Shown: one piece after another, positions 7,443 through 60,780 of the stretch
How positions within the stretch are numbered: the first letter of the stretch is position 1
Layout of the letters: every line of letters begins with the position of its first letter
Assembly: GCF_003351105.1 (NCBI RefSeq)
Contig: NZ_NKRG01000003.1
Location: forward strand, 157,586-221,585
Direction: 5' to 3'
DNA from: Thermosipho africanus Ob7
Lineage (GTDB): Bacteria; Thermotogota; Thermotogae; Thermotogales; Fervidobacteriaceae
Length of the DNA: 64,000 nt
Notes under the pieces: generated by a model
The model's database searches: none
What the model saw: only the letters and a program-made list of their open reading frames with translations
Told to the model about the DNA's origin: nothing
Translations under genes and position numbers: made by a program

Positions 7443-7457
7443 GGGGGATAGGGGGAG
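7443..7457 (+). promoter_or_regulatory. Double G-run ribosome-binding region, possible sRNA target
   Basis: The leader of the TPR gene carries two G5 runs separated by ATA (7443-7455) and then AG. Its 13 bases 7443-7455 are the exact reverse complement of 58855-58867, the C-rich part of a candidate small RNA upstream of dnaB. The second G run acts as the Shine-Dalgarno for the ATG at 7463. Confidence 0.5.
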
Positions 7458-7462
7458 TTTCT

Positions 7463-8155
7463 ATGAAAAAAGTTGCTCTTATTTTTTTGATTCTTTTATC
7501 TAGTGTATTTTTCTCAAATAGTCTTGAAGAAAATTTTATAAAAGCAAGGAATTTTCATGACATTGACCTAATAAAAGATGTTATATCAACTGCAAAAAAA
7601 GAACAAAATAATGTTATTTACGCAGAAGCCTTGATGGAATACGCTCTATGGGGAGATTCTGAAGATAAAGAAAAGTTGTATACTGAAGCACTTGAAGTGA
7701 TTAAAAAAGAAATTGAAAAAGATCCAAATAACGGTAGAGCATATTATGTTGCAGGCGCTATAGTTGGAAGGTTGGCTCAGTATAAAGGAATCGTTCAAAG
7801 TCTTTTTATGTTAAATGATTTTGACAACTACATTGAAAAGGCTATTGAAATTCTTGATGATAACTTTTATAAAGGACTTGCATTAATTGCAATGGGAATG
7901 AGGTTTAGAGATGTTCCATGGCCTTTGAGAAGCTATAAAAAAGCAGAAAAATATTTGCTTGATGCCTTGGAAATTCTTCCAAATTACCCAAATATACATC
8001 TAGAACTTGGGAAGTTATACGAAAAAATGGGAAAGGTTGAAGAGGCAAAAAAAGAGTATGAAATAGTTATAAATTCAAATGCTCATCCACTGTTAAATGC
8101 TACACATGAAGAAGCAAAAGAAGAAGCAAGGCAACTTTTGCAAAATTTAAAGTGA
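7463..8155 (+). CDS. Secreted TPR-repeat protein
   Basis: The protein has 230 residues with a cleavable-looking signal peptide (KK, then about 13 hydrophobic residues, then FFSNS). The rest is helical repeats. At least two TPR-like units are readable: PNNGRAYYVAGAIVGRLAQYKG and the C-terminal HLELGKLYEKMGKVEEAKKEY. No catalytic motif is visible, so it is probably a periplasmic scaffold. It has its own promoter inside the end of meaB and an unusual double G-run ribosome site. The next gene, phoH, starts 9 bases downstream. Confidence 0.85.
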   Translation: MKKVALIFLILLSSVFFSNSLEENFIKARNFHDIDLIKDVISTAKKEQNNVIYAEALMEYALWGDSEDKEKLYTEALEVIKKEIEKDPNNGRAYYVAGAIVGRLAQYKGIVQSLFMLNDFDNYIEKAIEILDDNFYKGLALIAMGMRFRDVPWPLRSYKKAEKYLLDALEILPNYPNIHLELGKLYEKMGKVEEAKKEYEIVINSNAHPLLNATHEEAKEEARQLLQNLK

Positions 8156-49166: not shown

Positions 49167-49484
49167 ATGAACGAACAAAAAATACTCACGCTCCTTGGAT
49201 TTGCATCAAAAGCAAAAAAATTAGTATATGGGAAAGATAATATAAGGGATTATATAAAAAACCCAAAACTAAAAAATAAGCTAATAATCATAGCAAAAGA
49301 CACAGGAGAAAGAGTAAAAAAAGATATTAAAATAAGATGCGATATTTCAAATGTTCCTTTAATTGAATTTTCCGATAAAAAAACTATATCAAAAGCAACA
49401 GGTATGGAAAATGTTGCGGTAATTGGAATAATCGATGAAAATATGGTCAAAAGCATTTTAGAGTTTTATTCCAAGGGGGGATAA
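49167..49484 (+). CDS. L7Ae/L30e family RNA-binding protein (YlxQ-like)
   Basis: The 105-residue protein has the L7Ae fold: LLGFASKAKKLVYGKDNI, KNKLIIIAKDTGERVKKDI and the nucleic-acid loop VAVIGIIDENM. Such proteins bind kink-turns in RNA, often in ribosome-associated contexts (YlxQ). Here it is next to folE2 rather than nusA-infB. The ATG at 49167 follows GGAGGTGTAAGA. Confidence 0.88.
   Translation: MNEQKILTLLGFASKAKKLVYGKDNIRDYIKNPKLKNKLIIIAKDTGERVKKDIKIRCDISNVPLIEFSDKKTISKATGMENVAVIGIIDENMVKSILEFYSKGG
49471..49483 (+). promoter_or_regulatory. G-run ribosome site of the GNAT gene, second sRNA match
   Basis: CCAAGGGGGGATA precedes the ATG at 49486 and is the exact reverse complement of 58860-58872, the other half of the C-rich tail of the candidate small RNA. 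It overlaps the end of the L7Ae gene. Confidence 0.45.
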
Positions 49485-51822: not shown

Positions 51823-51852
51823 AAATTAAAGGGGGATTTCCCCCTTTAATTT
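51823..51852. terminator. Bidirectional terminator between M32 peptidase and asnS
   Basis: A 13-bp stem: AAATTAAAGGGGG (51823-51835), loop ATTT, CCCCCTTTAATTT (51840-51852). It overlaps the asnS stop codon (51851-51853). Confidence 0.85.
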
Positions 51853-55076: not shown

Positions 55077-55102
55077 ATAGAATTTTTCAAAGGGGGGATT
55101 GT

Positions 55103-56353: not shown

Positions 56354-56981
56354 ATTTTTTACAATTATCGGAAATTTTACACTCACTGCAAATGGGATTT
56401 TTTCTACAAACCGCTTTTGAGTGTTCAACAATTAACCCGTGAAGTTCTTGGAACAATTTGACATCTTTAGGATAATTTTCGTAGAAAAGATTTTGAACAC
56501 TATCATAATCTGACAGGTTAATACCATACATTCGTTTTAAAAGTCTTTTTGTGTAAGCATCAACAACAAAAACTGGTATTTCAAGTGCATAGAGTAAAAT
56601 GGAATCGGCTGTTTCTTTGCCGATTCCATTTATTTTCAAAAGCTTTTCACGAAGATTTTCCAATCTTTTTATCTTAGAAAGGTCAAAATCATATTCTTTG
56701 AGAAATGAAAGTAAATTTTTTAAACGCCTTGCTTTTAAGTTATAAAACCCAGCCGGTTTAATTAACTCTGCTAAATAGTCAACTGGCAATTCATACAAAT
56801 ACTCAAGCAATTTTTCTTTAGTTTTATTTTTATAAATATTTTCAATTGCTCTTTCAACATTTTTCCAATTCGTATTTTGAGTTAAAACCGCAGTAACAAT
56901 TATTTCTTCAGAAGTTCCTGGCCACCACTTCCCAACACTACCGTATGCTTTTAATAATAATTTATACAAGTTTTTCAACAT
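56346..56981 (-). CDS. Endonuclease III-like DNA glycosylase lacking the catalytic lysine
   Basis: The 211-residue HhH-GPD protein excises damaged bases. It has the helix-hairpin-helix INGIGKETADSILLYAL, the catalytic Asp in FVVDAYTKR and a C-terminal iron-sulfur motif (CRKNPICSECKISDNC). The lysine found after GVGR in endonuclease III is Glu here, so lyase activity is unlikely and a monofunctional glycosylase, such as a MagIII-type alkyl-base enzyme, is more plausible. Its ATG overlaps the ridA stop by one base. Confidence 0.9.
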   Translation of the reverse strand: MLKNLYKLLLKAYGSVGKWWPGTSEEIIVTAVLTQNTNWKNVERAIENIYKNKTKEKLLEYLYELPVDYLAELIKPAGFYNLKARRLKNLLSFLKEYDFDLSKIKRLENLREKLLKINGIGKETADSILLYALEIPVFVVDAYTKRLLKRMYGINLSDYDSVQNLFYENYPKDVKLFQELHGLIVEHSKAVCRKNPICSECKISDNCKKSI

Positions 56982-57355: not shown

Positions 57356-57385
57356 TTTTCCACCTCCCCTAATTTTTCCAAGAAA

Positions 57386-57442: not shown

Positions 57443-58642
57443 ATGCAATTTTGCGTTTCAAAAATCAGAAGTCTGTTATTCTGCCCAAAAAAATTTCTTA
57501 ACGAATCAAAAGAAGAAGTTTTTCTTGATCCTTATCTTGAAAAAAAGACGAAAAAAGTAATTAAAACCGGTGGAAAAATTAAAAAGGGAGTTTTGTCTAC
57601 AAAACTTTTTAATTTTAAGCTTATTGCTTCAAATGTAGAAGTAATTTCTAATAACATTGAAATTTATATTATTTCTCATAGAAATGGTAAAAAACTCTAC
57701 CAATATCATTACATAGAATCTGCTGCATATGGGTATATTTTTTCAAAACACACAGAAAAGAAAATAAATGTTATTTTTAAAAGCAAATATTACAACGTAA
57801 CAATGCCCTGGGAAAAATATCTAAAAGATTTTATTGATATAGTTGAAGAATTAAAAAATTACAAAGAAATAAGCCCCAGAATAAATCCTGAATGTAAATT
57901 TTGTAAATATAACCTTGAATGTACAAATATTTTAATTAAAGAAAAAAATCTTTCACTGCTTCGTGGAATTGGTAGTGCAAAACTGGAAAAATTATTTGAG
58001 CATAACATTTATACATTAGATGATCTAATAAAAAACAAAGATGTAGTTGAGAATATATTTGGAGAAAAAGGGAAAAGATTAATACTGCAAGCAACCGCTT
58101 TTATTGAAAATAAGCCTATTTTAATCTCAAAGGTTGAAAAATTAAAAAACGGAATATTCTTAGATATTGAAAGCTACCATGATTTTCACTTTTTGTTTGG
58201 AATTTTAAAAGATAATGAATATATTCCATTTTTTTCATTTAAAAGGGAAGATGAAGAAAAAACTTTTCTGCAGCTAATAGACTTTTTAAAAAAACAAAAC
58301 GCTCCAATTTACCATTACTTTAATTATGAACCAATTCAAATCAAAAAGCTTGCTACAAAATACAAAGTGAAAAATAAAGTAAAATTTGAATTTATTGATA
58401 TATACAAAATAATATCCAGTAGTTTAGCAATACCAACAATTTCTTACTCGCTTAAAGTTCTGGCAAAATATTTTGGATTTAAGTGGAGAACAAATTTAAA
58501 TGGGAGCAGCGTCATACAAAAATTTGAAGAATACAAAAAATCAAAAGATAAAGCAATACTAAACGAAATATTAATGTATAACGAAGATGACGTTAGAGCA
58601 ACAAAACTATTATTTGATATTGTTAACCAATTTTCAAAATAG
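57443..58642 (+). CDS. TM0106-family RecB-like nuclease
   Basis: The 399-residue protein matches the TM0106/TIGR03491-type architecture. The N-terminus resembles RecB/Cas4 nucleases, with cysteine ligands in FCPKKF and the later PECKFCKYNLECTN (an iron-sulfur-type cluster). A helix-hairpin-helix follows at about residues 170-200 (LRGIGSAKLEKLFEHNI). The C-terminus is an RNase H-like exonuclease with GIFLDIES and EDDVRATKLLFDI. The N-terminal PD-(D/E)xK core looks reduced. The ATG at 57443 follows TTGGAGGATATA. Function is unknown; DNA repair is suggested by neighbours. Confidence 0.85.
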   Translation: MQFCVSKIRSLLFCPKKFLNESKEEVFLDPYLEKKTKKVIKTGGKIKKGVLSTKLFNFKLIASNVEVISNNIEIYIISHRNGKKLYQYHYIESAAYGYIFSKHTEKKINVIFKSKYYNVTMPWEKYLKDFIDIVEELKNYKEISPRINPECKFCKYNLECTNILIKEKNLSLLRGIGSAKLEKLFEHNIYTLDDLIKNKDVVENIFGEKGKRLILQATAFIENKPILISKVEKLKNGIFLDIESYHDFHFLFGILKDNEYIPFFSFKREDEEKTFLQLIDFLKKQNAPIYHYFNYEPIQIKKLATKYKVKNKVKFEFIDIYKIISSSLAIPTISYSLKVLAKYFGFKWRTNLNGSSVIQKFEEYKKSKDKAILNEILMYNEDDVRATKLLFDIVNQFSK

Positions 58643-58844
58643 TTTTTCTCTCTGATAAATATGTTAACGTATTTATTAATGAAGATAATAGGAGTTTTAT
58701 TGAATTTTTTATAAAAAACATGGAAAAATATCAGAATTTTAACATTTTAAGAAAACGCTTTATATTACTTAATCTTAACCTTTTTAACCTAATCTTTGTT
58801 TTTAATGTGTTGAGATGTAACAATTGCTATGTTATCTTATAAAC
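58643..58844. other. AT-rich noncoding stretch upstream of the candidate small RNA
   Basis: About 200 bases with no convincing ORF. They include GTTAACGTATTTATTAATG near the start and a possible promoter, TTGAGA (58810-58815) with TATCTT (58833-58838) at 17-base spacing, just before the small RNA. Confidence 0.5.
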
Positions 58845-58926
58845 AGAGCAGCGACCCCCTATCCCCCCTTGGAACCATTTTCCAAGAAATAGGCCCCAGA
58901 TTGAAAAATCTGGGGCTTTATTTTTA
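58845..58926 (+). ncRNA. Candidate small RNA with C-rich anti-Shine-Dalgarno tail and terminator
   Basis: The predicted transcript has an unpaired C-rich 5' tail (58855-58868, C5-TAT-C6), a small hairpin CTTGGAA/TTCCAAG (58868-58886) and a strong terminator. It ends before the dnaB promoter, so it is not a dnaB leader. The C-rich tail is perfectly complementary over 13 bases to the ribosome regions of the genes at 7463 and 49486. It contains no ORF that explains the sequence. No known RNA family was recognised. Confidence 0.45.
58893..58926 (+). terminator. Strong intrinsic terminator upstream of dnaB
   Basis: GCCCCAGATT (58893-58902), loop GAAA, AATCTGGGGC (58907-58916), then TTTATTTTTA. 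It is the only terminator seen between the TM0106 nuclease gene and dnaB. Confidence 0.9.
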
Positions 58927-58935
58927 TGGTATAAT
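58927..58935 (+). promoter_or_regulatory. Extended -10 promoter of dnaB
   Basis: TGGTATAAT directly follows the terminator T tract; the gene starts at 58961 behind AAAGGAGG, giving a leader of about 20 bases. No -35 box is visible. Confidence 0.6.
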
Positions 58936-58960
58936 CTTTTTCGAACAAAGGAGGAAAAGT

Positions 58961-60780
<1,820 letters not shown>

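What the first reader, a model, noticed from the sequence alone, without database searches (positions are those of the whole stretch)
58845..58926. Candidate trans-acting small RNA with a C-rich anti-Shine-Dalgarno tail upstream of dnaB
The interval holds a C-rich unpaired tail, a 7-bp hairpin and a strong terminator, yet contains no gene and is insulated from dnaB, whose extended -10 promoter follows the terminator. A plausible promoter (TTGAGA, 17 bases, TATCTT) sits directly upstream. C-rich tails that pair with G-rich ribosome sites are an established sRNA design in some Gram-positive bacteria (for example RsaE-like RNAs), but I know of no such RNA in Thermotogales. In an AT-rich genome a C5-TAT-C6 run is itself striking.
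Basis: partly seen in the sequence, partly recalled or inferred. Interest (0 to 1): 0.8.

Follow-up and report, generated by a model that had tools for sequence, protein, structure and literature searches.

The report
Thermotogota C-rich small RNA family
A C-rich sequence found in about two thirds of the searched genomes of the bacterial phylum Thermotogota is predicted to be the working end of a small RNA that would silence messenger RNAs by covering their ribosome-binding sites; no transcript has been measured here.

Summary
The interval has a promoter-like site, a C5-UAU-C6 core, a 7-bp hairpin and an intrinsic terminator, separate from dnaB. The core is not local: the exact 13-mer CCCCCTATCCCCC is in 69 of 103 Thermotogota genomes and near-exact in 5 more. 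Flanking genes change between clades, so this looks like a stand-alone gene and not a dnaB leader. In the two closest families 27 of 31 genomes carry two such RNAs: A (this one) and a paralogue B with three C-tracts. 38 of 50 upstream regions have a (T/G)TAACA-type element next to the -35 box.

Most likely mechanism (inferred): the core pairs with G-rich Shine-Dalgarno (SD) sequences and blocks translation. In the same 64-kb window an acetyltransferase gene has a 15-nt perfect complement of A at its SD, and an exported TPR-protein gene a 13-nt one (19 pairs with B, one bulge).

Against: both long sites are intact only in the nearest relative; the SD co-evolution test was mixed; there are no expression data.

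No Rfam family matches. It works like LhrC, RsaE, FsrA or sX13 but is not shown to belong to any of them.

The parts
58810..58838 (+). Promoter-like site of the small RNA: TTGAGA (58810-58815), 17-nt spacer, TATCTT (58833-58838)
   Evidence: -35/-10 layout recurs in relatives (by eye)
58818..58834 (+). TAACA-N7-TGTTA inverted repeat inside the spacer; a (T/G)TAACA-type hexamer recurs at this place in many family members, probable regulator site
   Evidence: 85 hexamers of this type in 50 upstream regions against 24.5 in shuffles (largest of 200: 37); 38 of 50 regions have one 32-45 nt before the core (my count of the rows); motif chosen after inspection
58845..58926 (+). Predicted small RNA A, about 75-82 nt; 5' end inferred from the -10 box
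   Evidence: Promoter position, terminator, conservation
58851..58872 (+). Conserved core GCGA-CCCCC-UAU-CCCCCC-UUGG, predicted seed
58868..58886 (+). 7-bp hairpin CUUGGAA/UUCCAAG
   Evidence: predicted at 37 to 80 C
58891..58926 (+). Intrinsic terminator of the small RNA
58927..58961 (+). Separate extended -10 box (58927-58935) and SD (58947-58954) of dnaB
   Evidence: similar arrangement in Thermosipho-like relatives
58961..60298 (+). dnaB, neighbour only
49469..49483 (+). Predicted target site of RNA A: TTCCAAGGGGGGATA, 15-nt perfect complement, at the SD of a GNAT acetyltransferase gene (ATG 49486)
7443..7462 (+). Predicted target site of RNAs A and B: GGGGGATAGGGGG (13 nt) plus, for B, GTTTCT after a bulged A, at the SD of the gene at 7463
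7463..8155 (+). Predicted target gene: TPR-repeat protein, 230 aa, with a signal-like N-terminus (my reading)
55090..55099 (+). Weaker predicted target site of A: AAGGGGGGAT (10 nt) at the SD of a transporter-like gene (GTG 55103; function is my reading of the ORF)

Best explanation
Window 58845-58926 is predicted to encode a stand-alone small RNA of a C-rich family whose core is found in 74 of 103 Thermotogota genomes searched, and it likely acts in trans by pairing its C5-UAU-C6 core with G-rich ribosome-binding sites and so blocking translation. Shown by sequence: the conserved core, the promoter-like and terminator layout, the changing gene neighbours, a paralogue B in the same genome, and two long complements exactly at SD sequences in the window. 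Inferred: transcription, accessibility of the core in the cell, pairing with mRNA, repression, help from Hfq (encoded in 98 of 103 genomes), and control by a regulator that reads (T/G)TAACA. A seed with eleven C would suit a thermophile: at 70 C the duplexes of A with its two best sites are predicted at -17.6 and -18.5 kcal/mol against about -5 for the 16S anti-SD on the same sites.
For: Core conservation: exact 13-mer in 69 of 103 genomes, near-exact in 5 more; genomes with either, by family: f1 20/20, f2 11/11, f3 8/14, f4 1/1, f5 1/1, f6 2/2, f7 0/3, f8 3/10, f9 15/17, f10 10/21, f11 3/3 (tally). Independent gene: in Thermosipho-like genomes before dnaB, in Fervidobacterium between rnfB-like and pelG-like ORFs, in f2 divergent from a ferredoxin-NADP-reductase-like pair, in G008 elsewhere again (gene names are my reading of the translations). 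A terminator-like stem plus T-run follows on the same strand in the members inspected by eye from f1-f6 and f8-f11. Paralogue B. Promoter element. Targets: the longest complement of A's first 45 nt in the window is 15 nt; 1 of 300 shuffled versions reached that, and 2 of 300 reached A's three matches of 12 nt or more; the two longest matches (15 and 13 nt) sit at SDs. Of 64 C5-NNN-C5 variants only TAT has a complement in the window. SDs of form AGGGGGGAT: 13 in the own genome, 0 in the backward control; more per genome with the core (9.0) than without (5.9), Mann-Whitney p 0.006. Homologues of the TPR gene in G003, G004, G006 and G008 keep complements of about 10-11 nt at the SD (by eye).
Against: No RNA data. 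The 15-nt site is intact in G001 but degraded in G002, G003 and G008; in 4 of 7 stretches fetched for it the gene was not found. The 13-nt site is intact only in G000 and G001; most of the other homologues of 30 inspected show only a G-rich SD. The ratio of AGGGGGGAT to AGGGGGGAA SDs does not depend on the core: 666:473 with, 170:118 without (p 0.77 on per-genome fractions); it differs within f10 (102:91 against 30:60, p 0.002) but not within f8 (p 0.46) or f9 (p 0.28), and f3 genomes without a detected core have as many AGGGGGGAT SDs as those with it. B alone does not clearly beat shuffles in the window (13 nt, p 0.07). A's third match of 12 nt or more is to the hairpin arm and not at an SD. 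SDs with six G are common anyway. Conservation of a stem at the core is weak. Duplex energies ignore the folding of each partner.
Confidence: 0.7

Rival explanations
1. The RNA is real but its C-rich core mainly binds a protein (for example Rho, Hfq, a KH-domain or cold-shock protein) as a decoy or sponge; SD complements are a by-product of G-rich SDs.
For: The core is conserved as sequence more than as structure, in differing flanks; predicted target sites are not well conserved; G-rich SDs are common.
Against: The 15-nt match extends beyond the C-tract into UUGGAA, and B's match into AGAAAC, which binding of C by a protein would not explain.
Confidence: 0.15
2. The core pairs mainly with one abundant RNA (an rRNA region or another structured RNA) and not with mRNAs.
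For: A fixed 13-nt core in two thirds of a phylum's genomes is more constant than a changing set of mRNA targets would need. Recalled, not tested: 23S rRNA contains GGGGAUA, a 7-nt complement.
Against: Neither pattern listing showed a recurrent non-mRNA partner, but these searches were not designed to cover structured RNAs and no rRNA was examined.
Confidence: 0.08
3. The interval is a DNA-level element (protein-binding or unusual-structure C/G tract), not an RNA gene.
For: A tract of this kind can be conserved as DNA.
Against: Terminator-like stem with T-run on the same strand downstream in the members inspected by eye from f1-f6 and f8-f11, while the part between varies by clade.
Confidence: 0.04
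4. It is the leader or attenuator of dnaB.
For: It lies directly upstream of dnaB here and in 8 relatives.
Against: dnaB has its own -10 box after the terminator; the RNA lies elsewhere in Fervidobacterium and f2.
Confidence: 0.03

Closest known systems
LhrC (Listeria), with RNAIII, RsaE, SprD and FsrA as its UCCC kin (PMC4132741, passages seen)
   Same: C-rich UCCC motifs, several copies per genome, covering of G-rich SDs
   Different: Long C5-UAU-C6 core shared by much of a phylum; no sequence-family match; two copies with different 3' parts; repression not shown here
sX13 (Xanthomonas) (PMC3771888, passages seen)
   Same: 4-5 C motifs against G-rich motifs near start codons
   Different: sX13 is 115 nt and shows its C motifs in three loops; here the core is predicted unpaired near the 5' end
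cia-dependent csRNAs of Streptococcus (named in a passage of PMC4132741; regulator details recalled)
   Same: Several related copies in one genome; shared promoter element
   Different: Element and spacing differ as far as recalled; regulator here unknown
6C RNA of Actinobacteria (listing only; details recalled)
   Same: Tracts of six C exposed for pairing
   Different: 6C is not among the ten Rfam matches listed at E up to 10 for 58640-59000

Membership tests
Any Rfam family (release 15) | Match at or above the curated gathering score | tested here: not met
   whole window: only a tRNA; 4 loci: L097, L099 and L101 with RNA B, and L098, not a B locus: none. Highest-scoring sub-threshold match in 58640-59000: Yfr10, 24.1 bits against 43 needed; lowest E-value 0.11, a betaproteobacterial family at 19.7 bits against 50
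UCCC-type SD-blocking sRNAs (works like) | Accessible UCCC motif | tested here: met
   UAUCCCCC unpaired in the predicted minimum-energy fold at 37, 60, 70 and 80 C; prediction only
UCCC-type SD-blocking sRNAs (works like) | Complement at the SD of target mRNAs | tested here: met
   15 nt at 49469 and 13 nt at 7443; both intact only in G000 and G001, shorter in some others
UCCC-type SD-blocking sRNAs (works like) | Measured repression of target translation | not testable with these tools
   Needs reporters or proteomics
LhrC/csRNA-like multicopy sets | Two or more related RNAs in one genome | tested here: met
   A-type and B-type both in 30 of 103 genomes (listings; tally)
LhrC/csRNA-like multicopy sets | Control by an OmpR-family regulator through spaced hexamer repeats | tested here: inconclusive
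   Hexamers enriched; 12 pairs spaced 10/11, 21/22 or 32/33 nt against 0.5 in shuffles (largest 6), but motif and spacings were chosen after inspection; layout differs from the repeats before pst genes
Hfq-dependent sRNAs | Hfq encoded in the host | tested here: met
   98 of 103 genomes; dependence itself not testable
cis leader of dnaB | Fixed position before dnaB | tested here: not met

The most novel reading that the evidence does not exclude
Thermotogota share an ancestral pair of C-rich regulatory RNAs, described in no paper that ten searches listed, whose near-invariant C5-UAU-C5/6 seed acts as a global anti-Shine-Dalgarno switch tuned for high temperature: a phylum-wide trans-acting sRNA system of thermophilic bacteria.
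Probability: 0.45. Interest if true: 0.88.

Novelty: new variant of a known kind. Interest (0 to 1): 0.74.

Why it matters
A review counting Rfam families lists only one distinct annotated sRNA for Thermotogae (PMC9029176, table passage). The Thermotoga maritima transcriptome study reports 12 (abstract) or 13 (results) putative ncRNAs without definable structure and argues for limited regulatory capacity (PMC3636130, passages). A small RNA whose seed is shared by much of the phylum would give a directly testable handle on post-transcriptional control in (hyper)thermophiles, where short seeds should melt, and it comes with concrete predicted targets and a shared promoter element to start from.

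Tried and rejected
Rejected: dnaB leader. Rejected as support: enrichment of exported proteins among genes with AGGGGGGAT SDs (22 of 85 against 7 of 40 for AGGGGGGAA, Fisher p 0.37, crude hydrophobicity rule). Rejected as support: dependence of the AGGGGGGAT:AGGGGGGAA ratio on the core over all genomes. Weak: cross-genome homologous pairs 17 among AGGGGGGAT genes against 1 among AGGGGGGAA genes, because the sets differ in size, some pairs are paralogous transporter proteins and SDs are inherited. Weak: a stem of CUAUC with a downstream GAUAG, total stem length 225 against 175 in shuffles over 51 RNAs, few individually unusual, none at all in four. Rejected: Rex operator (the T. maritima operator quoted in PMC8836258 differs). 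Not supported: phosphate regulon; several pst upstream regions carry adjacent TTAACATTT-type repeats, unlike these promoters. Uninformative: TTGANNNTAACA in the window, 2 matches against 1.6 expected; the pattern was mis-spaced and does not fit the RNA's own promoter. Rfam sub-threshold matches were taken as chance. Alignments A1 and A2 were too gapped in the hairpins for a covariation count, so none was made. The backward control is useless because the core is a mirror repeat; of its 20 matches in 17 genomes several are the other strand of the RNA genes.

Rows left out: the 90 AGGGGGGAT and 42 AGGGGGGAA hits are the listings without nested duplicates; one search then left out 5 and 2 with ORFs under 60 aa. 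One search used 50 representatives of 64 upstream regions (near-identical ones collapsed; eight loci dropped beforehand as duplicates or chance hits; L503 gave no match). One search masked 58601-59100. One search saw 30 loci, while 71 genomes had a homologue. Counts were typed from the tables.

Full report
What is there. The interval reads as a complete small transcription unit: -35 TTGAGA, 17-nt spacer, -10 TATCTT, a start expected near 58845, a C5-UAU-C6 core at 58855-58868, a 7-bp hairpin and a strong terminator ending near 58926, after which dnaB has its own extended -10 box and SD. The C-rich part is near the 5' end, so 'tail' is not apt. The predicted fold leaves the core unpaired at 37 to 80 C.

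Conservation. A DNA search with the 161-nt region found the same core block in 28 of 41 genomes including the own one. A pattern for the core plus TTGG with up to two mismatches hit 77 of 103 phylum genomes, some by chance; a second pattern for the paralogue hit 59 of 103. Counting only the exact 13-mer CCCCCTATCCCCC from both listings gives 69 of 103, with 5 further near-exact, against 0.001-0.06 expected per genome. All 20 genomes of the own family have it; by type, 18 of 20 have A and 20 of 20 have B; in f2 11 of 11 have A and 9 of 11 B; in f3 0 of 14 A and 8 of 14 B. Families f7 (0 of 3), most of f8 (3 of 10) and half of f10 (10 of 21) lack the core. Whether the core occurs outside the phylum was not searched systematically.

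Context. In the nine Thermosipho-like genomes the RNA sits between a nuclease-like ORF and dnaB; in Fervidobacterium between rnfB-like and pelG-like ORFs; in f2 divergent from a reductase-like gene pair (my reading of translations). RNA B lies near mnmE-like and rnhB-like genes in different clades (same caveat). Moving neighbours with a constant core and terminator are what a trans-acting RNA gene shows.

Anatomy of the family. RNA B reads C6-UAU-C5-UUGAGAUACA-C6-AC and then a terminator. Elsewhere the core is set in other clade-specific frames, for example inside an outer GAGUGC/GCACUC or GAGUGC/GCGCUC stem in g25 and g26. The UAU can pair with a nearby AUA in many members, but this is only modestly above shuffles. 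So the sequence of the core, not one fold, is the conserved property.

Promoter. (T/G)TAACA-type hexamers occur 85 times in 50 upstream regions against 24.5 in shuffles; 38 of the 50 have one 32-45 nt before the core, 12 do not (my count of the rows). Some further copies lie 22, 33 or 45 nt away. I chose the motif after looking, and members are related, so this is a lead. It does not match the Rex operator (PMC8836258, passages seen) or the repeat layout before pst genes.

Targets. SDs of the form AGGGGGGAT occur in 100 of 103 genomes. Inside the window the two longest complements of A's first 45 nt both fall on SDs: 15 nt before a GNAT acetyltransferase gene (49469) and 13 nt before a TPR-protein gene with a signal-like N-terminus (7443); 1 of 300 shuffled A sequences reaches 15 nt. 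With B of the same genome the second site forms 13 + 6 pairs around one bulged A. Predicted duplex energies at 70 C are -17.6 (A with the GNAT site), -18.5 (A with the TPR site), -21.5 (B with the TPR site) and -11.8 (A with the transporter-like site) kcal/mol, against -4.6 to -5.1 for a recalled 16S anti-SD on those sites and -3.9 for A on the dnaB SD; partner folding is not included. In G001 both long sites are intact. At the GNAT gene pairing is degraded in G002, G003 and G008. At the TPR gene G003, G004, G006 and G008 keep about 10-11 nt and most other homologues of 30 inspected only a G-rich SD.

Tests that did not help. Across 103 genomes the share of AGGGGGGAT among AGGGGGGAT plus AGGGGGGAA SDs does not depend on having the core (p 0.77), though the raw number of AGGGGGGAT SDs is higher with it (p 0.006) and the ratio differs within f10 (p 0.002), not within f8 or f9. 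Exported proteins are not significantly enriched.

Comparison. No Rfam family matches. By mode it resembles the UCCC-type RNAs that block SDs in low-GC bacteria, as described for LhrC, RsaE and FsrA (PMC4132741, passages), and sX13 (PMC3771888, passages). Membership in any of them is not shown. My ten literature searches listed, by title and start of abstract, no paper on such an RNA in Thermotogota; most listed papers were not opened, subscription journals are largely missing, and the T. maritima ncRNA table (PMC3636130, Table S5) could not be read, so B may already be an unnamed entry there.

Verdict. A conserved, very probably transcribed small RNA gene (my estimate about 0.93), most likely an anti-SD regulator (about 0.7), of a new family within a known kind of mechanism.

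Noticed in passing
L097 position 2001 (G000:C2:162768) and homologues L099, L100, L101, L505-L510, L543-L550: Paralogous RNA B with three C-tracts, near mnmE-like or rnhB-like genes; also present in f3 genomes where A was not found.
   Followed up: yes
L512-L531, regions upstream of pstS-like genes: Several carry adjacent TTAACATTTCTTAATATTT-type repeats at about 10-11 nt spacing, a candidate Pho box of Thermotogota.
   Followed up: partly
window about 51823-51852: Inverted repeat AAAGGGGG-ATTT-CCCCCTTT (seen in the printout); AAGGGGGAT in it is a 9-nt complement of RNA B.
   Followed up: no
genomes G048, G049, G050 (family f8): Four, three and three Hfq matches per genome, where nearly all other Thermotogota with Hfq have one.
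   Followed up: no
G059 and G065: Ten and six near-identical copies of AGGGGGGAAGGATTGAGGAAATG or a close variant, perhaps the start of a repeated mobile gene.
   Followed up: no
L504 (G036:C58:49744) and G020:C9:182258: A core-like ACCCCTATCCCCCCTTGT/C; for L504 no promoter-terminator layout was seen by eye, perhaps chance or within a gene.
   Followed up: partly
window 57374-57385 (-): A 12-nt complement of RNA A's hairpin arm a little upstream of the SD of the minus-strand gene ending at 56981.
   Followed up: no
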